Source: Patescibacteria group bacterium (lineage in GTDB: Bacteria > Patescibacteriota > Minisyncoccia > Minisyncoccales > CG1-02-41-26). From it: 34,263 nt of DNA. Below the pieces are notes generated by a model, which ran no database searches, was not told the origin of the DNA, and saw only the letters and a program-made list of their open reading frames with translations. The DNA is taken from the NCBI GenBank assembly GCA_023474835.1, contig JAMCXQ010000015.1:1-34263 (forward strand), in the 5' to 3' direction. Position numbers and translations under genes: made by a program. This document shows positions 254-27,809 of this stretch, piece by piece; the first letter of the stretch is position 1, and every line of letters begins with the position of its first letter.

Positions 254-1465
254 TCATTTGTTTTCTTGGTATGGCACAAATTGGCCATCTTTGACGGTTT
301 TTAAAATAACAGGTTTTTCAACATCGCCATTTTGTTTAAAGCTTGTATTACCGGTTACGCCTTGATAGTTTTGAATTTTCAGCAATTCGTTTTTGATTGC
401 CTCGGGGTTATTGTTGTTGTTTTTTATAGCCAAGGCCAAAATTTTTATTGCATCATACCAGGTAGCGGCCCAGACCTCTGGCTGTTTGTTATATTTAGCC
501 ATAAATTTTTTCTGAAAATCAACGATGCGTGGCTCGCTGCTATTGGTAATAAAATCAGGGTTAGTATAAATTGTGCCTTCGGCCGCCGGGCCTGCTACCA
601 GCAAGTTTTGTTGGCTTTCAAATCCTGGCGGCGCCAAGAATTGGCAATCCATTCCCAATTCTCTTGCTTGCTTCATAATCAAACCAGCTTCATTGTATGC
701 GAAAACATAAAGAAGGTCTGGCTTGGCGTCTTTTAATTTGGTTAACTGGCCGCGAAAATCCGTAGCGCCCCTTTCAAAAACTTCTGTCCCCGCAAATCTG
801 TTTCCCAAGTTTTCTTTTAGCTGGCTTATTAACCACTGGCTAAAATCAAATTGGAAATAAATAACAGCCAATTTTTTGTCCTGAAATTTATTGTTGATTA
901 AATCAAACATGGCTTGCAAGTCCTTTTCAAAGCCAGTGCCGTTTCTGAATACATAGCCGTTGCCTTTTTCTGTGATGCCCGGAGTGACGGTATTTGTCCA
1001 TAAAATAACTTTTGTTTCTTTGATAATAGGCAAAACCGCATCAGTGTCGCTGGTGGTGAAAACGAACACTACTGGAACCTTGTCAACATTGACAAGTTTA
1101 TTCACTGCGGTTACAGCTTGTTGATTTTGGCTTTGGCTGTCTTCGTATATAACTTTTAATGTTGGGCCGTTAGTCCCGCTTTGCTGATTAATTTCTTCAA
1201 TAGCTAAATCAATACCTTCTTTGGCATAATTGCCTAAATTAGCGGCTGGCCCGGTTAAAGGTAAAATCGCTCCGATTTTGATTGGTTCTTTGGTTGTTGG
1301 AGGAAGAGTGGATTTTTTATTTATCCCACACCAAATACCAACAACAGCGGCGATAACAATAACAAACATTAAAATCATCTTTAATATTTTACTCATATTT
1401 TTTAGGTTTAAGCCAACTTTATCAAAAACAGGAACATCGTCAATATTTCTGTTGTGTTTTGACAC
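254..1465 (-). CDS. ABC transporter substrate-binding protein, branched-chain amino-acid type (periplasmic-binding protein type I)
   Basis: 403 aa; N-terminal TM anchor then IKIGAILPLTGPAANLGNYAKEGIDLAIEEIN, typical of the LivK/Peripla_BP_6 family. Confidence 0.9.
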   Translation of the reverse strand: MSKHNRNIDDVPVFDKVGLNLKNMSKILKMILMFVIVIAAVVGIWCGINKKSTLPPTTKEPIKIGAILPLTGPAANLGNYAKEGIDLAIEEINQQSGTNGPTLKVIYEDSQSQNQQAVTAVNKLVNVDKVPVVFVFTTSDTDAVLPIIKETKVILWTNTVTPGITEKGNGYVFRNGTGFEKDLQAMFDLINNKFQDKKLAVIYFQFDFSQWLISQLKENLGNRFAGTEVFERGATDFRGQLTKLKDAKPDLLYVFAYNEAGLIMKQARELGMDCQFLAPPGFESQQNLLVAGPAAEGTIYTNPDFITNSSEPRIVDFQKKFMAKYNKQPEVWAATWYDAIKILALAIKNNNNNPEAIKNELLKIQNYQGVTGNTSFKQNGDVEKPVILKTVKDGQFVPYQENK

Positions 1466-1542
1466 AGCCGTTGACTTTTTGCCAAGAATACGCCATTATT
1501 TAACTATAAGTATCTGTCGCTTTCGCCGACAGCTCAACATTT

Positions 1543-2274
1543 ATGGTAAAAAAACTTTTAAGCGCACTCGGTTTAACGGAAAAACAGGCATTGGTGTATT
1601 TGGCCTGTTTGGAATTAGGCACTTCCCCGGCGCACAGAATCAGCCAGCGGGCCGGCTTGCCCCGTTCCACCACCTACGAAATTTTATCTAGTTTGCAGCA
1701 AAAGGGTTTTGCGTCAGTTTTTTTCAAAAAAACCATCAAGTATTTCAGCGCCGAAGAGCCAAAACGAGTTATTAGCGAAACGCAAAGCCGGATTGATTTA
1801 TTAAAAAACGCCCTGCCCCAAATAGAAGCAAGGTATTTGAAAGCCAGAGGCCGGCCTCAGGTCAGATTTTATCAAGGCAAAGTCGGCATCCAAAATGTTT
1901 TAGAAGAAATTTTAGAAGACACTCCAAGAGAAGTTTTCGGTTTCAGCGCGGTTGATGATTTTTTTAATTCTTTAGACGATTATTTTCCCAGTTTTGTGGA
2001 GCGCCGGGTGAAAAGAAAGATTTTTGCCAAATTGATTATGTCCAGTTCAATGATTAGGGCAAAAGAAACAAAAACATTGGATGCCAAACAGCTGAGGGAA
2101 TCGCGTATTATCTCTTCGCCCCATCAGCACCACGGCTCAATCCTTATTTGGAAAAACAAAATCGCTCTAATGTCGCTTAAAGACGAGTTTGAGGCGGTAG
2201 TTGTTGAAGGCGCTGAATTAGCCACGGTGCAAAAAACAATGTTCAACATTTTTTGGGACTCATTACCTAATTAA
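1543..2274 (+). CDS. TrmB-family transcriptional regulator
   Basis: 243 aa; N-terminal winged HTH LSALGLTEKQALVYLACLELGTSPAHRISQRAGLPRSTTYEILSSLQQKG plus TrmB-like C-terminal domain. Confidence 0.85.
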   Translation: MVKKLLSALGLTEKQALVYLACLELGTSPAHRISQRAGLPRSTTYEILSSLQQKGFASVFFKKTIKYFSAEEPKRVISETQSRIDLLKNALPQIEARYLKARGRPQVRFYQGKVGIQNVLEEILEDTPREVFGFSAVDDFFNSLDDYFPSFVERRVKRKIFAKLIMSSSMIRAKETKTLDAKQLRESRIISSPHQHHGSILIWKNKIALMSLKDEFEAVVVEGAELATVQKTMFNIFWDSLPN

Positions 2275-2290
2275 AAAACCCAAAACCCTG

Positions 2291-2326
2291 TGTTTCAAGT
2301 TACGTCGATCGACGTAACTTGAAACA
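2291..2326. repeat. 36-bp perfect palindrome, GATC-core family copy 2; sits between convergent genes and may terminate both
   Basis: TGTTTCAAGTTACGTCGATCGACGTAACTTGAAACA followed by TTTTTTATTT. Confidence 0.97.
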
Positions 2327-2335
2327 TTTTTTATT

Positions 2336-2366
2336 TGCTTACAACTTATCTGCTTACAGCTTACTT
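2336..2366. repeat. TAAGC-type heptamer tract overlapping the livH stop codon
   Basis: minus strand AGTAAGC TGTAAGC AGATAAG TTGTAAGC. Confidence 0.7.
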
Positions 2367-3230
2367 GTTTTCTCGTTTTCCTAAAATGCCCTGTGGTCTG
2401 AACAGCAGAAAAATAAACAAAATTACAAAAGCAATGGCGTCTTTGTAGCCGGAGGGCAAAAACCAAATGCCGAAATTTTCCACCAGCCCCAAAAGAAAAC
2501 TGCCCAAAATCGCCCCGGGCACCGAGCCTATCCCGCCAATTACCGCGCCTGTGAATCCTTTTATCATTAAGCTGGTGCCCATTGTCGGCTCCAGGTTTTG
2601 CTCCAAACCCACCAAAATGCCCGCCACCCCGGCAATTGCCGAACCGATTATAAAAACCCAGTTGTAAATTTTTTCCGCGGAAATGCCGCAAATCTCGCTT
2701 ACTTGTTTGTTGTCTGCCACAGCCCGCATAGCCTTGCCGATTTTTGTTTTTTTCATTAACAAAAATAGCAAAGCAAAAAACACAGCCGAAACAACAATTA
2801 TCGCTATTTGCAAGGGTGTTATAATTGCCCCTGCAAATTCCAGGCCCTTGGCTATTTCAATAAAACCGATTGTTTTTACGTCCGCCCCGAAAAAAAGCAA
2901 AATCAATGATTCGAACAGAATGAGCAGGGCGAAGCTGGCAATAAGCAATATAACAGCGCTGGCTTTTTTCTGCCTGAATTTTTTATAAACCAAAACATTG
3001 ATTGCCAGGCCGAAAACAGCCGCCAAAACAATTGCCAGAATAACTGCCAGCCAAAAATTCAAACCGAGCAAAGCAAAAAGCAAGTATAAAAAATAGCCAG
3101 ACAGGGCAATAACTGACCCATGAGCGAAATGCACGAACTTGCAAGTGGAATAAATCAAAGAAAACCCGCTTGCCGCCAAAGCGTATATTGCCCCTGCTAT
3201 TAAACCATTGACTAAAAGTTGGGTGAACAT
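2361..3230 (-). CDS. livH: Branched-chain amino-acid ABC transporter permease LivH
   Basis: 289 aa; MFTQLLVNGLIAGAIYALAASGFSLIYSTCKFVHFAHGS..., GGIGSVPGAILGSFLLGLVE. Confidence 0.9.
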   Translation of the reverse strand: MFTQLLVNGLIAGAIYALAASGFSLIYSTCKFVHFAHGSVIALSGYFLYLLFALLGLNFWLAVILAIVLAAVFGLAINVLVYKKFRQKKASAVILLIASFALLILFESLILLFFGADVKTIGFIEIAKGLEFAGAIITPLQIAIIVVSAVFFALLFLLMKKTKIGKAMRAVADNKQVSEICGISAEKIYNWVFIIGSAIAGVAGILVGLEQNLEPTMGTSLMIKGFTGAVIGGIGSVPGAILGSFLLGLVENFGIWFLPSGYKDAIAFVILFIFLLFRPQGILGKRENK

Positions 3231-5408: not shown

Positions 5409-5579
5409 TTAGAAATCGCCGCCATCGTCATCAGCGTCGTCATCTTCCTCTTCCTTTTCATCTTCATCTTCGGCTTCATCAATATCGTCTTCGTCAATTT
5501 CTTTTTCTTCTTCATCGCCGGGCTCCTCATCGTCGTCCTGAGCGATAATGTTGTTTAACAATTCATCGTCAAATTGCAT
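5409..5579 (-). CDS. Small, very acidic protein (start reassigned to MQFDDELLNN...)
   Basis: 56 aa; Asp/Glu-rich C-terminus; ATG at 5579 preferred over the upstream start because the upstream part runs through an inverted repeat. Confidence 0.55.
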   Translation of the reverse strand: MQFDDELLNNIIAQDDDEEPGDEEEKEIDEDDIDEAEDEDEKEEEDDDADDDGGDF

Positions 5580-5730: not shown

Positions 5731-7563
5731 TTACTTTTCGCGCTTTAACTCGCCACGTTCAACAATTTCGTAGAACTTTTCATCGGAGCCGTACGGGTCA
5801 TTGATTTCTTTTACAATAGCGGGCTTAGTAGTTTGCAAGACGCGGTTGTTGGTGTTATTGTCTTTGCTGGTTTCCCCACCGAACCAACTGCTTCCAATCA
5901 TTTTCCCCGCGCGAACAATTACTAATTTTTGAGGATACCCATTTGTGCCAATAAACATAACCCCACCCTGATACTCTTTGTTGGCTAACTGTACTTCAGG
6001 CGGCGCGTCGTCAAATAAATGCTCGCCTTTTTTATCCGTGTAGCTATATTTTTCAGTGATTTCCGGTAAATTCGTTTGCACCCACTGCGTCAATTTTACA
6101 AACCGTTCCGCGGGAGATAATAGAATATCTTGTTTACCCTGGTTTGCCAGCCCCTCCCTAACTGCCCCTATCACCTTGTTGATTTGCGGGGCTAATTCCC
6201 GAACTTTGCCATGTTCCCCCGCCCTGTTCAGGGTTTTTAATTGTTCTAACATTGTTTCGCTGTTTTGTTCCAGCAGTTCTTTGGCTTGGTCAAACTCTTT
6301 TTTATCCAAGAGATTGTTCACCTGCCCCAGCACTTCATCAATGGTCGGCGGGGTTTCGGGGGCTGGGGGCTGGTCGGTTTGTGTTTCTGCTAATAATGGG
6401 GGTTTTTCTTGCCCGGGCTCCAAGCCGCTTGATTTGAACTTATCGTAGATATTTTTAAATGGCGAAAGATAATCTGGGTTTAATATTTTAGTCCATTCGC
6501 CTGTCAGGAATTCAACTGCAAGAGTTTTTGCAACATCGGGCAACGGGGTTTCGGGCAATATACGCCTGTTTTTATCCGGTGCGAACATCAAGCGCATAGC
6601 TTTTTCCCGTGTCAGATAAACATTCATCGTAGCCATTGCCCCTTCGATTAGCTTCCATTTCAGCAGGTCCTCCATAAACGAATAAAGATAATATGGAGGA
6701 TAGGCCCCGCCATCCATTTCATTTTTGACAGATTTTTCAATAAATTCTCTGAAAAACGGCCGGCTGATTAAGCTCGATACCCTATCTTTATTTGCATTGC
6801 CCCGGTCTTTCCCTAGCGATTCGTTAAACAGCATTTGAAACCCTCTTATCGCTTGTGCGTATTTCTTTTTTTCAATATCGTTTCTGATTTGCGCAACAAC
6901 TTGCTCGGATATGTTTTTCATCATTTCCAGCGCTTCGTCCAATGTTTCAGGCAGTTTTTCTGTCGACGGTTTGGTTTCCGTAGCGGAAGCGGATGATTGT
7001 TTTTCCGCAGCATTTTCTTCCCCCCTTTGCCCTGTTTGCGGCTTTTCTTCAATAATCAACTGGTTTTGGAAAAATTGGCAGAATTCTTCCGAGCCCCCAA
7101 CCATTACCTCTGCTTTGCGAGAAATTTCCGGGAAAGCAGAACAGTTAAAACCCGCATTGAGAACTTCGTTTACCCGATAACTTGGATGCTCTAATTTTTC
7201 CGGGTCTTTGGTCTTTAATATTTTACTTATAGTTTCTTTACTAAAACGCCCTGCAAGTTCTTGTGAGTCAGGGCTGTAAAAGCCGCCTATTCTGTCATTC
7301 GGGTAAACTTTAAGCGAACGAAGCAGGTCTTTACACCTTTCCCAAAGTTTTAATCTGCCATTCTCTATATTTCCGATTTTTGCTGTTTTATTTTTATGGA
7401 ATGCTTCAATTACCTCATTGGAAGTGGAAATTTTATCTCGCAAGCCGCGGTAAAACAAATAAGCCCAGTCCGTTAAAAACTCGGGAGGGTGAAATTCTTT
7501 TTTCTCCCCTGTTTCTTCCCAGCGTTTTTTGTATTCATTAAAATATTTCTCCAAATCTTCCAA
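5731..7563 (-). CDS. Mosaic hypothetical protein sharing modules with the upstream 920-aa gene; true start probably 7709 with a frameshift at 7622-7628
   Basis: 610 aa ORF with TTG start; contains PETPPTIDEVLGQVNNLLDKKEFDQAKELLEQNSETMLEQLKTLNRAGEHGKVREL also found in the neighbour. Confidence 0.8.
   Translation of the reverse strand: MEDLEKYFNEYKKRWEETGEKKEFHPPEFLTDWAYLFYRGLRDKISTSNEVIEAFHKNKTAKIGNIENGRLKLWERCKDLLRSLKVYPNDRIGGFYSPDSQELAGRFSKETISKILKTKDPEKLEHPSYRVNEVLNAGFNCSAFPEISRKAEVMVGGSEEFCQFFQNQLIIEEKPQTGQRGEENAAEKQSSASATETKPSTEKLPETLDEALEMMKNISEQVVAQIRNDIEKKKYAQAIRGFQMLFNESLGKDRGNANKDRVSSLISRPFFREFIEKSVKNEMDGGAYPPYYLYSFMEDLLKWKLIEGAMATMNVYLTREKAMRLMFAPDKNRRILPETPLPDVAKTLAVEFLTGEWTKILNPDYLSPFKNIYDKFKSSGLEPGQEKPPLLAETQTDQPPAPETPPTIDEVLGQVNNLLDKKEFDQAKELLEQNSETMLEQLKTLNRAGEHGKVRELAPQINKVIGAVREGLANQGKQDILLSPAERFVKLTQWVQTNLPEITEKYSYTDKKGEHLFDDAPPEVQLANKEYQGGVMFIGTNGYPQKLVIVRAGKMIGSSWFGGETSKDNNTNNRVLQTTKPAIVKEINDPYGSDEKFYEIVERGELKREK
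6257..6362. repeat. Composite repeated DNA block, exact matches to 8355-8416 and 9278-9345
   Basis: 6257-6318 = 8355-8416 (62 nt identical by eye) and 6295-6362 = 9278-9345 (68 nt identical by eye). Confidence 0.85.
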
Positions 7564-7726
7564 GTGTTTTCTCTTGTCTGCTTCGTCATACTCCGTTTCT
7601 TCAATCCATTTTTGAAGCTCGTTTTTTTCAATTCCAAAACTTGTTCTGTCCAGCCCTCGCTTTCTTTGTACCCTTCAGCATTAGGTTTTAATTTTTCTTG
7701 ATTTTCCATAAAAAATGATGCTTTTG

Positions 7727-10489
7727 CTATGTTCTGGGTTTTGTTATGACAATGGCTTTTTCCAAAACAAGAGGACCCCTCTCGGACGCCTTACCTTTGT
7801 AGGAAGCTGATGTTTTAAAGCCTGGCTGCAACACCTCTTTGACAAGCGCGTTGGTCACCGGCCCCTCTGTGCTATAATGTTCTTTTCCGGCATATGACAT
7901 CCCTGTTTTTTGTATAACATATATGTCCAATTCTTCCATTTTTTTAACAAACAAATCCCAGACATTTTTTATTTTATCTTTTCTTTTAAATAGCTCCACG
8001 CTGGCGTTTATAAGACCTCGCAATGCCGGATTTAAGGGTTGATGGGCGTCTGGGTCATCTATTATTGAAAATTCATCTTCGGGCACACGGTCTGTTTGTT
8101 GTACCCTTCTTTGGTAGGCAATATCAAACTCTTTTTCTGGGTAATCAGGGGTCTTTTCAATCTCTGCTATTAATTCTGATGCAATTTGCCAAATTTTTCC
8201 TCTTGCTTGTGTTTCCTGCCTGGTCGGTTTTTCTTGCTGTTCCGTTAGCCCCTCCTCAACCAACCGTATCGCTTCATTTATCGCATCGCCCAATTCCTGA
8301 ACTTTGCCATATTCCCCTGCTTTGTTCAGAGTTTTTAATTGCTCTATCATTGCCTCGCTGTTTTGTTCCAGCAGTTCTTTGGCTTGGTCAAACTCTTTTT
8401 TATCCAAGAGATTGTTTGCTCGGTTTAGCGTTTCTCCAACAATGCTTGGCGGGGCTTCGGGGGCTGGGGCGGTTTCTTTTGGATAAATTTTTATATCCAA
8501 ATCAGGCGGTTTTGTAAATCCATAGAGAGAACCGGAGAGAAGAATCGGCTCAAAGGAGTTTATGCTATTTAGCAAACTTTGCAATGTCCATTGTTCAGTT
8601 TGTAATTTTTCTATGGCGCCGCTATGATATTCAGGGTCATTGACAAAAAAAGAAATATTACCCCTATTGGCCTTGAATCCAGAAATCAAGATTGAATGGG
8701 CGGCCGGGTTGAATGGGTCAGTGTTTAACACTGCAACACCGCCTTCTCGCAAGAGTTGAAGCAGCTCCGCTACGCTGTTCAATGGGCGTTTTTCTAACCC
8801 TTTGCCCCGTAGGTATTCTTTTGTTTTTTCTATGTTTATACCCTGTTTGCCGCTTTCCTTAATTGATTCCAAAATATCCTTTTCCGAAAGGTTGTCCCTT
8901 AACCCCAGCGCCTCCAAAACATTTAACGCAGTGGCTGTGGTGCAGGACAGGGGTTTTGTTCGCGCAAAGTGTTCTTTTAGGATGTTTGGGGAGACATATT
9001 CAACGGATTCGTATATTTTGATTATTCCTTTTGTTTGTATCTCGCGTAACTCGTCATCCGTTTTTTGGATTTGTTTTTGAATTTTTTCTTGTGTTGTTTT
9101 GTTTTCGGGTGTTTTAATATCATCTATGCTGATTGTTATTTTTTCTGGACTTGGTTGTTGGCTTGGGTATTGGCTAATTTGGGATTTTATTTTTTCCAGT
9201 AATTGTTCCTCTTGCGTTTTAAACTTCGGGTTATCAAAAATGTTTGTTTGCGCGATTTTTTCTTGTTGTTTTTCCATCTCTTTTTTATCCAAGAGATTGT
9301 TCACCTGCCCCAGCACTTCATCAATGGTCGGCGGGGTTTCGGGGGTTTGTGGTTCGGGCGGCTTTTCTGCTAATGATTCGGTTGGTTTGTTTGTTTCGTC
9401 CCTAAAAATAACCTTTCCTTTTTTGACGACTTCCCATCGTTCGTCCGCTAACTTCTCTGTATAAGCAAGTTGCTCAATTTTTTCAATTATTCCTTCGCTG
9501 GCGTTATCAGGGAGATTGTAAAATGGTTTTAGCTGTTCTGTGAGTGTGGTATTGTTAAAATGGAGCCAAAGCGTTGGGAAAATATATCCTTTTTCTTTTG
9601 AATTATCTATTATGAAAAAGAAAGTCCCGGATCGGTTTTCTTCCAGCCGCACTTTTTTGTATGAATCCATTATACCCATATCCTCAATGCCCGGCGCGCT
9701 CATTCTCAAAAACCGATTTTTATATGTTGATCTCAGATAAACTTCCCATTGCCCCGGATCACTTTTACGATATTCGTTTATTTTTTCCATTAGTTTTTCC
9801 AAGCTTAGCGGGGCTTCGGGGGCTGGGGCTGGCGGTTCGGGCGACTTTTCTTTTTTGGTTAACAGTTCTGCTTTGTATTTTTTGCATTTTTCAACATTTG
9901 CTTTCCATTGCTCAAGGTTTTTTTCGGCTTCGGCTTGTGTGCCAAGGGAAACATGAGCTTGTTCGTAAATACTACCGGGTTCAAAAGACAAAGATAGCGC
10001 TGACGCCTTAACTCCAGCTTTTATTACATTTGTGACAAATCCATCACGAATACTTCCGCTAAATGGTATTTGATCTCTGTGTTCAAAGCATATCGTATTT
10101 TCCGGATCCATTACCAATAGTCCTAATTTTAGCAGTTTTTCTTTTATTTTTTTCCACAGGTCATAATCAAAAATTTTTTCAATGCCTCTTTTGTCTTTTG
10201 TATAACCATAAAGGGCAAAATAGTTTATAGCTAGATTCGATAAAAATTCTACTTCGCGCCGCACTCTTTTTTCTTGGTCTTGAATGGGCCTGCCGTCATC
10301 ATCAAGGGAGGAATTTTGTAAGTCGCTAATATAATCTTGCTTCCTTTCCGGCGGTAATAACTCGTCGGGTGATTTTTCAATTTCAGCAATCAGCTCGTTT
10401 TTCACTTGTTCAAATCTTTCTTCAAACTTGGCAAACCGTTCCGTTTCGCTGAGATTTTTGAAACTTTCCCTTGTTGTTGGTTTTTCCAT
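7727..10489 (-). CDS. Large mosaic protein with internal C39-like cysteine peptidase domain
   Basis: 920 aa; KPLSCTTATALNVLEALGL ... NPAAHSILISGF ... FFVNDPEYHSG (Cys/His/Asp-type signature); repeated linker modules APEAPPSI...NNLLDKKEFDQAKELLEQNSEAM. Confidence 0.8.
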   Translation of the reverse strand: MEKPTTRESFKNLSETERFAKFEERFEQVKNELIAEIEKSPDELLPPERKQDYISDLQNSSLDDDGRPIQDQEKRVRREVEFLSNLAINYFALYGYTKDKRGIEKIFDYDLWKKIKEKLLKLGLLVMDPENTICFEHRDQIPFSGSIRDGFVTNVIKAGVKASALSLSFEPGSIYEQAHVSLGTQAEAEKNLEQWKANVEKCKKYKAELLTKKEKSPEPPAPAPEAPLSLEKLMEKINEYRKSDPGQWEVYLRSTYKNRFLRMSAPGIEDMGIMDSYKKVRLEENRSGTFFFIIDNSKEKGYIFPTLWLHFNNTTLTEQLKPFYNLPDNASEGIIEKIEQLAYTEKLADERWEVVKKGKVIFRDETNKPTESLAEKPPEPQTPETPPTIDEVLGQVNNLLDKKEMEKQQEKIAQTNIFDNPKFKTQEEQLLEKIKSQISQYPSQQPSPEKITISIDDIKTPENKTTQEKIQKQIQKTDDELREIQTKGIIKIYESVEYVSPNILKEHFARTKPLSCTTATALNVLEALGLRDNLSEKDILESIKESGKQGINIEKTKEYLRGKGLEKRPLNSVAELLQLLREGGVAVLNTDPFNPAAHSILISGFKANRGNISFFVNDPEYHSGAIEKLQTEQWTLQSLLNSINSFEPILLSGSLYGFTKPPDLDIKIYPKETAPAPEAPPSIVGETLNRANNLLDKKEFDQAKELLEQNSEAMIEQLKTLNKAGEYGKVQELGDAINEAIRLVEEGLTEQQEKPTRQETQARGKIWQIASELIAEIEKTPDYPEKEFDIAYQRRVQQTDRVPEDEFSIIDDPDAHQPLNPALRGLINASVELFKRKDKIKNVWDLFVKKMEELDIYVIQKTGMSYAGKEHYSTEGPVTNALVKEVLQPGFKTSASYKGKASERGPLVLEKAIVITKPRT

Positions 10490-11904: not shown

Positions 11905-12972
11905 TTAAAAATCAATTTTTTGGGCGTTGGTCGGTTTGGTTTTCTGTTTGAGAATTATCACGACAATTGCCGAACCAGCAGCAATGGCAATGCCAACGGC
12001 CAATTCCAAAATACGGTCCGGGTTTTTGGAAAAAGGGGTTTTGGCATTTATGTTGGCAGTCAGGTCTTCGGCTGTTTGCGCAATGTTTGACAAGGCGTTT
12101 GTCGCTGGATAGCCGGTCATGGACTTAACCTGGTTAAGCCCAGGGATGGCGGGGCCGGCAAGATTTTGCGCGCCCGGGGTGGGAGTGGAGCTCCAGACGT
12201 GATTTTGCCCCAGCCTGTTCCAGGATTGTCCCTGGCTTGCTTTGCCATATTCGGTTTTGCCGGCAATCTGTCCGTTTGGGTCCAGCAATTCCAGGCCGTC
12301 GCCGCTGTTTTGCAAAACGATTTTCGTCTGCGGTCTTGTCAAAACCAAAAAACCGTTCGCTTTTATTTCCGTGTTGTCAGGAAAAACAAATGTTTTTATC
12401 GAGCCGACAGTGTCTCTTAAACTCCAGCCCGCCAAAGAAACGTCAAAATTGTTAGCGTTAAAAAGCTCTACCCACTCGTTTTCTTCGTCAGAACCGCTGG
12501 GAGAGGGCATTACTTCGTTGATAAAAACGTTTTTCGGATAAGCAATAGTCTCCAGAGGGGTCCTCTCCGGAACTATTTCCAGGGGAGTTGTCTCCAGGGA
12601 GGACCCCTCTGGAGGTTTCTGCGTGGGCGCGGTTTCTGTGGTTTCCGCAGTTGTTGCGTTGGCTGTGGCAGGAGATATCTGGGAATCGGCAGTTGGCAAT
12701 TGGCTGGTTTGGCAATTGACGCAAGCCAGGCCTTGCTGTTTGATTTTTTCTAAGGTTTTTTCGCCTATGCCTTTTACTTTCAGCAAATCATCTACCGAAG
12801 AAAACGGCCTGGCATTTATAATCGCCTGGGCTTTGACCGGACCGATACCCGTTAATGTTTCCAAGCCAGTTAACGAAGCAGCGTTAATGTCCACTGGCCG
12901 GCCCGCAACAGCGGGAAACAAGGGCATAACCGCAAGGCAAACAGCCAGCGCAATTAGCGGCAGTTTATTCAT
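11905..12972 (-). CDS. ComEA-like helix-hairpin-helix protein fused to lamin-tail domain, signal peptide and C-terminal TM
   Basis: VDINAASLTGLETLTGIGPVKAQAIINARPFSSVDDLLKVKGIGEKTLEKIK; FINEVMPSPSGSDEENEWVELFNANNFDVSLAGWSL; C-terminal ILELAVGIAIAAGSAIVVIILKQ. Confidence 0.85.
   Translation of the reverse strand: MNKLPLIALAVCLAVMPLFPAVAGRPVDINAASLTGLETLTGIGPVKAQAIINARPFSSVDDLLKVKGIGEKTLEKIKQQGLACVNCQTSQLPTADSQISPATANATTAETTETAPTQKPPEGSSLETTPLEIVPERTPLETIAYPKNVFINEVMPSPSGSDEENEWVELFNANNFDVSLAGWSLRDTVGSIKTFVFPDNTEIKANGFLVLTRPQTKIVLQNSGDGLELLDPNGQIAGKTEYGKASQGQSWNRLGQNHVWSSTPTPGAQNLAGPAIPGLNQVKSMTGYPATNALSNIAQTAEDLTANINAKTPFSKNPDRILELAVGIAIAAGSAIVVIILKQKTKPTNAQKIDF
12550..12614. repeat. Inverted repeat CTCCAGAGGGGTCCTC ... 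GAGGACCCCTCTGGAG in frame within the HhH/LTD gene
   Basis: 16-nt perfect arms, 33-nt spacer; core GAGGGGTCCTC shared with the uvrB palindrome. Confidence 0.9.
12676..12703. repeat. 7-bp-period repeat in the HhH/LTD linker
   Basis: TATCTGG GAATCGG CAGTTGG CAATTGG. Confidence 0.7.
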
Positions 12973-15460: not shown

Positions 15461-16495
15461 TTAACAGTTCAACAGGCTGAAAATTTCGCTTTTTGCGGCT
15501 TCCAAATTTCTTTCTTGGGAGCTGAAAAGCAATGCCGGCCCTTTTCTTTGGCTGGCCAGGGTTTTGGCGAGTTTCTGCGTTTTAGTTTTTTCCAACGAAT
15601 AAAAAACGCCCTTGACTTCAATCGGCGAGTTAATTTGTTCCCATAAAATCAGGAAACTTTGGAAAGGGAAAAGCCCGGCGCTTAGCTGTTGCAAACTGAA
15701 TTTTAAGTCTTTGCTTCCCGAACCGCTTAATTTGAATTCGTTTGCCCTCACAGAGGCCCAGCCGAGATTTTGTTCAAGAAAAAAGCGAAGCTTTCCGACA
15801 ATCAGTTCAAAAAGCTCCCAGATATTTTCCGTTTTTGCTTCCGTTGGGCGCAGAGCAATGCGGAGATGGCTGCTTTTTTGCTCCAAAACCCGTAAAATCG
15901 CCTTTGTTCTTTGTTCGGTCGGGGGGTTTTGTAGCAATCCGGTGAACAAACAATCAATAGTCGGTTCGGGCAAAGGGAAGTCGCAAACGCAGCAAAGCAA
16001 ATCAAAAACAACTTCGGAAATTGATGATGTTCCGCGCCTGTCAATGTCAATGATTTCTGCCGGCCTGCCGGAAAAAAGCGAACGGGCGGCCCGCAGATCG
16101 GCAACGCCCACGGTTATCAAAAGGCCGTTGTCCAAAACCGGCTTCAAAACAACGTTTTCTTTTTTCAGAACGCCGGAAGTTTTCAAAAGAAGGTTCAGAC
16201 CGTCGCTTGTTTTTTCATAAAAAAGTCGGGACAGCTTGGCGCCCGATTCTTTAATGGAAACGAGAAAGTCGGCCTGAGGCAGTGGCCGCATCAGTTCCTG
16301 TTTGGCCAGAAAGGAGAAGCGGGTCGGAAAATCGGGGGCGATGATGCTGGTGTTTGGATTTTGTTCTTTTAAGCTGTAAAATAGAGCCAGGGAGGCGGGC
16401 AGGCTGTCGCTTTGAAAATCGGGCGAAGCCAAAATATGGATTTTTTGCCCGCTTTGGATATAATCGTTAATTATTGAAACGGTTTCTTTTTCCAT
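15461..16495 (-). CDS. DHH-superfamily-like protein with apparently degenerate catalytic motifs
   Basis: 344 aa; IHILASPDFQSDSLPASLALFYSLKEQN and IIDIDRRGTSSISEVVFDLL resemble DHH folds but lack DxD and DHH residues. Confidence 0.5.
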   Translation of the reverse strand: MEKETVSIINDYIQSGQKIHILASPDFQSDSLPASLALFYSLKEQNPNTSIIAPDFPTRFSFLAKQELMRPLPQADFLVSIKESGAKLSRLFYEKTSDGLNLLLKTSGVLKKENVVLKPVLDNGLLITVGVADLRAARSLFSGRPAEIIDIDRRGTSSISEVVFDLLCCVCDFPLPEPTIDCLFTGLLQNPPTEQRTKAILRVLEQKSSHLRIALRPTEAKTENIWELFELIVGKLRFFLEQNLGWASVRANEFKLSGSGSKDLKFSLQQLSAGLFPFQSFLILWEQINSPIEVKGVFYSLEKTKTQKLAKTLASQRKGPALLFSSQERNLEAAKSEIFSLLNC

Positions 16496-25352: not shown

Positions 25353-27809
25353 ATGCCAAATTTAATTTTTCCCATAATTTTTTTGGCTGTGTTCTGTGTC
25401 GTGGCAGCGGGGTTTGTGGCGCTGTTTTTGTCTTTGGCCAAAAAAAAATCACAGTGGTTTCTGCAAAGGGGAATGAACCTGGCTTTGTTTTTGGTTTCGG
25501 TGCCGCAAATCCAGCCGAAAGAAACGGAAAAGGAAATTCCCCTGGAAGTTGTATTGAAAGCAGCCGAACAGTTTTACTATAATTTAGCGGCTATCAGGGA
25601 GAAGAAGAAGTTTTTCAAGTGGCTGGTGGGCAATCCGTTTTTGGTTTTTGAGATTGCGGTTGACCGGTTGAGCGAGGAAATCTGTTTTTATTTCGCCTGC
25701 CCTCATTCTCTGGCGGGTTTGCTTGAAAAACAAATTCTGGGCTTTTGGCCAAAAGCCAGCGTTCAGCGTATTAAGGATTACAACATTTTTAATCCTTCGG
25801 GCAAATCCGTCGGCTCTATGGCTATTTTGGAGAGGCCGGGCGTTTTACCTTTGAAAACATACCAGGAATTAAGAATTGATCCTATTTCGCCCATAACCAG
25901 CGTTTTAACCAAGCTGGCAAAAGAAGGAGAGGGCGCTTCGGTTCAGGTGATTGTCCGGCCCAGGGGCAAGGGCTTGGCAAAAAGAGCCACCAAACTGATG
26001 GAAAACATGCAAAAGGGGGCAAGGATTGAAAAAGGCGTGGCTGGCTTTGAGTTTTATGACTTGGGCAAAACCGCCGAGATGCTCGGCTGGCAGAAAAAAG
26101 ACAAAAATCCGCAAGAGGAAATGAAACGGCCGGAAATAACGGCCGTGCAGCAGGAACAAATGGCCGCCATAGGCAAAAAAGCCGCCCAGCCGGTTTTTGA
26201 CGTCAATTTGCGTTTGGTTGCTTCGGCCGGCGACGAAGCAAGGGCCCAGACGATTTTGAAAGAACTGGAAAGCTCTTTTGAACAGTTTAACACCGTTAAC
26301 CTCAACAGTTTGAAATTCAAAAATTTCAAGGGTTCGGCTTTGCGCAAGCTTTTTTACCAGTATTCTTTCCGGGTTTTTGACGACAGAAAAACAATGCTTT
26401 TGTCCGCGGCCGAGCTCACTGGTCTTTTCCATTTTCCTTTGTCGGAAATCGGCACGCCCCACTTAAAATGGCTTAAAGCGAAACAGGCGCCCCCGCCCAA
26501 CAATCTGCCTCAAACAGGGCTTTTAATCGGCCGGAGCGTTTTCAGGGGAGACGAGCGGCTGGTGAGGATGATGCCCAACGACCGGGGCAGGCATCTTTAC
26601 ATTATCGGACAAACCGGCACGGGCAAGTCGGCTTTTATGAGAGAGCTCATCAGGCAGGATATGGAACAGGACCAGGGGCTTTGTTTTATTGACCCGCACG
26701 GCGATTCCGCGGAAATTTTGCTGGGTCTGGTGCCCAAAGAACGGGCCGAGGATTTGATTTATTTTAACCCGACGGATCCCCAAAAGGCCATTGGTTTGAA
26801 TATGCTGGAGTACAATCCGCAATATCCGGAAACAAAAACGTTCGTCGTCAACGAGCTTTTGGAAATTTTTGAAAAACTTTACAACTTACAGCAGCACGGA
26901 TTTGGCGGCCCGGTGTTCGAGCAGTACATGAGAAATTCCCTTTTGCTGGTAATGGAGCACCCCGAGTCGGGCAACACTTTGATTGAAGTGCCGCGGGTTT
27001 TGTCGGACACGGGCTTTCGGAGGTTCAAACTGCAAAGATGTCGCAACATCGTGGTGAAAAATTTCTGGGAACTGGAAGCGGAAAAAGCCGGAGGCGAGGC
27101 GTCTTTGGCGAATATGGTGCCTTATATCACCAGCAAAATGAACATTTTCATCGCCAATGACATGATGCGCCCGATTATCGCCCAGCAAAAGTCGGCTTTT
27201 GATTTCAGAACGATAATGGATGAGGGGAAGATTTTGATCGTCAATTTGTCCAAGGGCCAGCTTGGCGATATGAATAGTTTCTTGCTTGGTATGATAATTG
27301 TCGGCAAGCTTTTGATGGGTGCTTTGTCGCGGGCCGACGTGCCCGAATCCAGAAGGCGCGATTTTCATGTTTACATTGACGAGTTCCACAACGTAACCAC
27401 CAAAACAGTAGCCACCGGCCTGGCCGAGGCGAGAAAATACCATTTGAATCTGGTTTTGGCCCACCAGTTTATCGGCCAACTTGACGAACAAACCCAAAAA
27501 GCCATTTTCGGCAACGTAGGTTCAATGCTGTCTTTCAGGGTTGGGCCTGACGACGCCAAGTATCTCATTACCCAGTTTGGCCCGGTGTTTGACGAAAACG
27601 ACCTGGTTAATCTGGATAACTACAACGCGGCAATCCGGCTTTTGATAAACGGCGAAACCTCCCGTCCGTTTAACATTATGACAATGCCGCCCAAAAAAGA
27701 CGATGAGCAGGCTGCCGGCTTAATGAAAGAATTGTCACGGATAAAATTCGGCAAAGACCGCCAAGTTGTTGAGAAAGAGCTGGCCGAGCGCTTGCGAAAA
27801 GAGTTTTAA
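25353..27809 (+). CDS. Membrane-anchored VirD4/TraG/VirB4-like conjugation-type ATPase
   Basis: 818 aa; N-terminal TM; Walker A GQTGTGKSAFM, CFIDPHGD, Walker B VYIDEFHN, LVLAHQFIGQL. Confidence 0.85.
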   Translation: MPNLIFPIIFLAVFCVVAAGFVALFLSLAKKKSQWFLQRGMNLALFLVSVPQIQPKETEKEIPLEVVLKAAEQFYYNLAAIREKKKFFKWLVGNPFLVFEIAVDRLSEEICFYFACPHSLAGLLEKQILGFWPKASVQRIKDYNIFNPSGKSVGSMAILERPGVLPLKTYQELRIDPISPITSVLTKLAKEGEGASVQVIVRPRGKGLAKRATKLMENMQKGARIEKGVAGFEFYDLGKTAEMLGWQKKDKNPQEEMKRPEITAVQQEQMAAIGKKAAQPVFDVNLRLVASAGDEARAQTILKELESSFEQFNTVNLNSLKFKNFKGSALRKLFYQYSFRVFDDRKTMLLSAAELTGLFHFPLSEIGTPHLKWLKAKQAPPPNNLPQTGLLIGRSVFRGDERLVRMMPNDRGRHLYIIGQTGTGKSAFMRELIRQDMEQDQGLCFIDPHGDSAEILLGLVPKERAEDLIYFNPTDPQKAIGLNMLEYNPQYPETKTFVVNELLEIFEKLYNLQQHGFGGPVFEQYMRNSLLLVMEHPESGNTLIEVPRVLSDTGFRRFKLQRCRNIVVKNFWELEAEKAGGEASLANMVPYITSKMNIFIANDMMRPIIAQQKSAFDFRTIMDEGKILIVNLSKGQLGDMNSFLLGMIIVGKLLMGALSRADVPESRRRDFHVYIDEFHNVTTKTVATGLAEARKYHLNLVLAHQFIGQLDEQTQKAIFGNVGSMLSFRVGPDDAKYLITQFGPVFDENDLVNLDNYNAAIRLLINGETSRPFNIMTMPPKKDDEQAAGLMKELSRIKFGKDRQVVEKELAERLRKEF

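What the first reader, a model, noticed from the sequence alone, without database searches (positions are those of the whole stretch)
5731..10489. Two adjacent mosaic giant genes exchanging DNA modules
The segment 6257-6362 matches 8355-8416 in its first part and 9278-9345 in its second (62 and 68 nt identical), with a shared pivot encoding NNLLDKKE. The proteins share PETPPTIDEVLGQVNNLLDKKE and FDQAKELLEQNSE-AM-EQLKTLN-AGE-GKV-EL modules between otherwise different domains. This resembles linker-mediated domain shuffling, as in polymorphic effectors or modular surface proteins, but no signal peptide is apparent. Function unknown.
Basis: partly seen in the sequence, partly recalled or inferred. 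Interest (0 to 1): 0.72.

Follow-up and report, generated by a model that had tools for sequence, protein, structure and literature searches.

The report
Two orphan genes with recombined linkers
Two neighbouring genes found in only one of the small-genome bacteria searched share three copies of a proline-plus-helix linker, and one copy is a patchwork of the other two, which points to local recombination between linkers rather than a known toxin or surface-protein shuffling system.

Summary
Three in-frame copies of a Pro-rich plus helical linker (K1 in the downstream gene, K2 and K3 in the upstream gene) share exact tracts of 62 bp (K1/K3) and 68 bp (K1/K2), joined at a 24-bp pivot common to all three and encoding NNLLDKKE. 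The K1/K3 run exceeds all 20,000 shuffles of their differences and contains no synonymous change. The likeliest cause is gene conversion or unequal exchange between linkers.

It is not a dispersed cassette system. The module occurs nowhere else in this 647-kb genome. Neither protein has a convincing relative in 247 genomes of the order, 387 of the class, phages or plasmids. Both genes sit as an extra block between ruvC and a PBP1-type gene that are close neighbours in most relatives, and have lower GC3 than most neighbours.

The upstream protein carries a weak C39-like cysteine-peptidase domain (Cys516, His598, Asp618) and a divergent duplicated end domain. No signal peptide or membrane span is apparent. 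The downstream gene lacks an in-frame ATG start and may be frameshifted. The polymorphic-effector or surface-protein reading is not supported; linker-mediated mosaicism is. Function remains inferred.

The parts
7727..10489 (-). P2, 920-aa orphan protein: A2 - B2 - K2 - helical X - C39-like - K3 - A3; its ATG follows the ruvC stop codon by 3 nt
   Evidence: ORF and sequence; no relative found
5731..7563 (-). P1, 610-aa orphan ORF (TTG start): N-terminal region - helical middle - K1 - C-terminal domain B1; open frame extends 37 codons upstream without an ATG
   Evidence: no relative found
6130..6378 (-). K1 linker (P1 396-478): Pro-rich segment plus TPR-like helices; the mosaic copy
   Evidence: the only confidently modelled part of P1, pLDDT about 60-90
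9278..9370 (-). K2, half linker in P2 (PETPPTIDEVLGQVNNLLDKKE), ending at the pivot; 68-nt exact tract with K1 at 9278-9345
8240..8473 (-). K3 linker in P2 (673-750); 62-nt exact tract with K1 at 8355-8416
6257..6318 (-). tract in K1 identical to K3 (8355-8416)
6295..6362 (-). tract in K1 identical to K2 (9278-9345); its overlap with the previous tract, 6295-6318, is the pivot
8495..9019 (-). C39-like cysteine-peptidase domain of P2 (491-665); candidate triad Cys516 (8942-8944), His598 (8696-8698), Asp618 (8636-8638)
   Evidence: Pfam PF13529, E 4.8e-4 and 21.1 bits (cut-off 24) when the piece is scanned alone; not reported for the whole protein; coordinates
9875..10489 (-). A2, N-terminal domain of P2
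   Evidence: similar to A3, shuffle Z 8.1
7730..8239 (-). A3, C-terminal domain of P2
   Evidence: similar to A2, shuffle Z 8.1
5409..5579 (-). 56-aa very acidic ORF; family members keep a like ORF between ruvC and the PBP1 gene, marking the far edge of the extra block

Best explanation
P1 and P2 are two adjacent, lineage-restricted multidomain genes placed as an extra block behind ruvC. Their unlike domains are joined by copies of one linker, a Pro-rich stretch followed by TPR-like helices, which spread locally by duplication. The three copies lie in direct orientation and in the same codon phase, so recombination between them gives in-frame results. At least one recent conversion or unequal-exchange event copied sequence between K1 and the two P2 linkers, with the junction at the shared 24-bp pivot (pattern shown; mechanism inferred). 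At protein level the linkers probably act as spacers holding separate domains. P2 probably works as a soluble protein with a C39-type papain-like domain beside duplicated end domains; whether it cuts anything is unknown (inferred, about 25% for a working peptidase).
For: Tracts, pivot and codon phase. Run longer than any of 20,000 shuffles. No synonymous change inside the tract, several outside. Linker confined to these two genes. Block absent from relatives that keep the ruvC - acidic ORF - PBP1 order. GC3 37.8 and 44.2 against 51-57 for the core genes measured. K1 modelled as helices with pLDDT about 60-90 and weak TPR matches. C39 match with candidate triad. No hydrophobic segment.
Against: No orthologue is available to date or polarise the exchange. 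Strong constraint on the DNA itself could also keep the tract unchanged. The C39 match is below Pfam's cut-off, is not seen with the whole protein or in the own-genome family search, and lacks the usual glutamine six residues before the cysteine. Structures are otherwise low confidence. P1 may be broken at its 5' end.
Confidence: 0.62

Rival explanations
1. Plain recent duplication without exchange: K1 is close to the ancestral linker; K2 is a truncated copy cut at the pivot, and K3 a full copy whose first part diverged.
For: K2 really ends at the pivot; duplication alone can give a copy that matches each of the others in one half.
Against: K1 and K3 show a sharp edge between a 62-nt clean run and about 32% difference in the rest of the compared stretch (41 of 129), which uniform divergence does not give.
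Confidence: 0.25
2. Assembly artefact: short-read assembly joined segments wrongly through the 62- and 68-nt repeats.
For: The genome is a 35-contig draft; repeats of this length can confuse short k-mers; P1 may carry a frame break near its start.
Against: Mis-joining cannot create the identical tracts; the repeats are shorter than usual reads; gene edges fit the conserved neighbours.
Confidence: 0.08
3. Polymorphic effector or surface-adhesin locus with exchangeable modules.
For: Mosaic modules; a peptidase-like domain; restricted distribution.
Against: No secretion signal, membrane anchor, trafficking domain or immunity gene; no further cassettes in the genome; no convincing family match in Pfam for the whole proteins, NCBIfam, PHROGs or PADLOC.
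Confidence: 0.05

Closest known systems
Gene conversion / concerted evolution between direct repeats within and between neighbouring genes (general knowledge)
   Same: Sharp identity tracts in otherwise diverged direct repeats, including synonymous sites
   Different: Here only the linker is shared; the joined domains of the two genes are not demonstrably homologous
Peptidase_C39_2 (PF13529)
   Same: Match over profile positions 13-142 of 143, with Cys, His and Asp in the expected order
   Different: Below the gathering score; usual oxyanion Gln and CG motif absent; embedded in a multi-linker protein
TPR helical hairpins (TPR_12, HOP TPR2A)
   Same: Helix pairs with weak profile similarity
   Different: E-values 0.02-0.2, not significant; only a short unit per linker
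Polymorphic toxin systems
   Same: Modular architecture
   Different: No trafficking domain, no C-terminal toxin series, no immunity gene seen

Membership tests
Peptidase_C39_2 (PF13529) | Profile score over the gathering threshold | tested here: not met
   21.1 bits against 24; no report with the whole protein
Peptidase_C39_2 (PF13529) | Cys-His-Asp/Asn triad in order | tested here: met
   C516, H598, D618 by sequence; assigned by eye within the matched stretch
Peptidase_C39_2 (PF13529) | Gln before the catalytic Cys | tested here: not met
   Position -6 is Arg510
Peptidase_C39_2 (PF13529) | Papain-like fold | tested here: inconclusive
   Model of this region has pLDDT below 50 almost throughout
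TPR repeat | Significant TPR profile match in the linker | tested here: not met
   Best E 0.055 in Pfam, 0.021 in PDB
Polymorphic toxin system | N-terminal trafficking domain or signal | tested here: not met
   No family match and no hydrophobic segment
Polymorphic toxin system | Adjacent immunity gene | tested here: not met
   Next genes are the conserved acidic ORF and PBP1
Polymorphic toxin system | Variable C-terminal tips among relatives | not testable with these tools
   No relatives found
Modular surface protein | Signal peptide plus anchor or membrane span | tested here: not met
   Highest 19-residue hydropathy 0.73 (P1) and 1.1 (P2) against 2.67 for the PBP1; no dedicated signal-peptide program was available

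The most novel reading that the evidence does not exclude
The three phase-matched linker repeats act as a built-in recombination switch: crossing over between K2 and K3 removes the peptidase-like domain in frame, and between K3 and K1 fuses the two genes, so a population would hold several architectures.
Probability: 0.08. Interest if true: 0.6.

Novelty: new member of a known kind. Interest (0 to 1): 0.3.

Why it matters
It is a clear small example of how orphan multidomain proteins in reduced genomes can be assembled: a linker duplicates locally and then recombines in frame. It would matter more if populations proved polymorphic at this locus.

Tried and rejected
Weak genome hits were read one by one and rejected. 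C39-piece hits were GatA-like, GatB-like, RpoD-like sigma factor and other unrelated proteins (judged by eye). P1 hits were coupling-type ATPases and the P2 hit a low-complexity secreted protein. The A-domain profile hit, E 1.4e-4, lies in a 1,901-aa secreted protein with lamin-tail-like repeats. The WD40 match of P1 to PDB chains has no stretch passing on its own and comes from summing over repeats. A1 of P1 as a third A domain is not established (hhalign P 0.0095; no better than shuffles in HMMER), B1 and B2 are not alike, and a fourth linker in the middle of P1, first suggested by Z 5.7 against K2, failed the profile test. Single-sequence AlphaFold models were too poor for fold search apart from the linker. 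Four viral-contig scans got no answer from the server. Paper searches gave nothing specific.

Full report
Observation. The two longest direct repeats in the window are 68 nt (6295-6362 = 9278-9345) and 62 nt (6257-6318 = 8355-8416); then come the 24-nt pivot and a 22-nt Pro-rich repeat (8449, 9808), also in a linker. All three pivot copies read NNLLDKKE in the same phase of their genes. Over 6149-6339 the K1 and K3 linkers differ at 41 of 191 positions, but one run of 62 is clean; 20,000 shuffles of the differences never exceeded 50. The codon comparison shows no synonymous change in that run and both synonymous and nonsynonymous changes around it. K1 and K2 are identical from 6295 to 6362 and unlike on both sides.

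Anatomy. Both genes are on the minus strand. P2 (7727-10489) has the order A2, Pro-rich segment, B2, K2, a helical charged stretch, a C39-like domain, K3, A3. P1 (5731-7563) has an N-terminal region, a helical middle, K1 and a C-terminal domain. A2 and A3 are similar (Z 8.1 against shuffles), so P2 also holds a divergent internal duplication. Outside the linkers P1 and P2 are not demonstrably related. The best modelled part of either protein is the K1 linker, helical with pLDDT about 60-90; nearly everything else is poor. Weak TPR similarity fits helical hairpins but is not significant.

C39-like domain. Scanned alone, P2 481-665 matches Peptidase_C39_2 at E 4.8e-4, 21.1 bits against a cut-off of 24, over nearly the whole profile. 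Cys516, His598 and Asp618 lie in the expected order. The Gln expected before the Cys (general knowledge of the family) is an Arg. The whole protein gave no such match at E up to 1, and an own-genome search with the family did not report this place. I treat it as a probable, possibly inactive, C39-like fold.

Distribution. In its own genome (647 kb, 93.8% complete) the linker occurs only in these genes at protein and DNA level (shorter DNA matches at E above 0.1 are noise). No convincing relative was found: P2 in 60 near relatives, P2 and P1 in 247 genomes of the order and 387 of the class, in two genome-contig scans with peptide patterns, or in phages and plasmids. Weak hits were inspected and rejected. 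The own genus has no other held genome, so a genus-wide gene cannot be excluded.

Synteny. In most family members whose contig spans the place, ruvC is followed closely by the PBP1-type gene, with gaps of about 0.4-0.6 kb, 1.3 kb in one; in the gaps that I translated a short, very acidic ORF lies between them. The window keeps ruvC, the acidic ORF (5409-5579) and the PBP1, with P2 and P1 as an extra block in between. A few relatives differ (L030, L038, L039). Lower GC3 in P2 and P1 (37.8, 44.2) than in the core genes measured (51-57) suggests a later arrival, though LivK at the contig end is also low (38.4). No integrase or flanking repeat was recognised; this was not searched for specifically.

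Gene integrity. P1 has no ATG in its frame upstream of the TTG. An ATG at 7708 opens another frame that overlaps the start of P1. Either P1 starts at a non-ATG codon or there is a frame break, real or from sequencing.

Explanation. Shown: three phase-matched linker copies, a mosaic pattern, restriction to two adjacent genes, an extra block at a conserved junction. Inferred: conversion or unequal exchange between the copies. Less certain: a soluble multidomain protein with a peptidase-like fold and spacers. Plain duplication with truncation of K2 is the main rival; it explains the two halves but not the sharp edge of identity between K1 and K3.

Verdict. A real and well-read pattern with an ordinary evolutionary cause, in genes of unknown function. 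That the organism is a member of the candidate phyla radiation is inferred only from genome size and gene content. Interest 0.3.

Noticed in passing
5409-5579 (-): A very acidic 56-aa ORF; relatives in the family keep a like acidic ORF between ruvC and the PBP1 gene. An uncharacterised small protein kept in place.
   Followed up: partly
7500-7733 (-): The start of P1 has no ATG in frame, and an ATG-started frame at 7708 overlaps it; possible frame break.
   Followed up: partly
11905-12972 (-): Protein with helix-hairpin-helix and lamin tail domains between RuvB and YebC, also present in many relatives.
   Followed up: no
25353-27809 (+): Large TrwB/VirD4-like coupling ATPase in a chromosomal setting.
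   Followed up: no
15461-16495 (-): 344-aa protein next to a type II/IV secretion-type ATPase, kept at about 28-35% identity in the family, with no Pfam match.
   Followed up: no
L030 94-6404: In this relative the ruvC neighbourhood holds a MoxR-like ATPase, a VWA-type protein and a 1,105-aa ORF instead of the PBP1 (identities by eye).
   Followed up: no
254-3230: Branched-chain amino-acid type binding protein and permease with a TrmB-type regulator at the contig end; GC3 of the binding protein is low (38.4).
   Followed up: no
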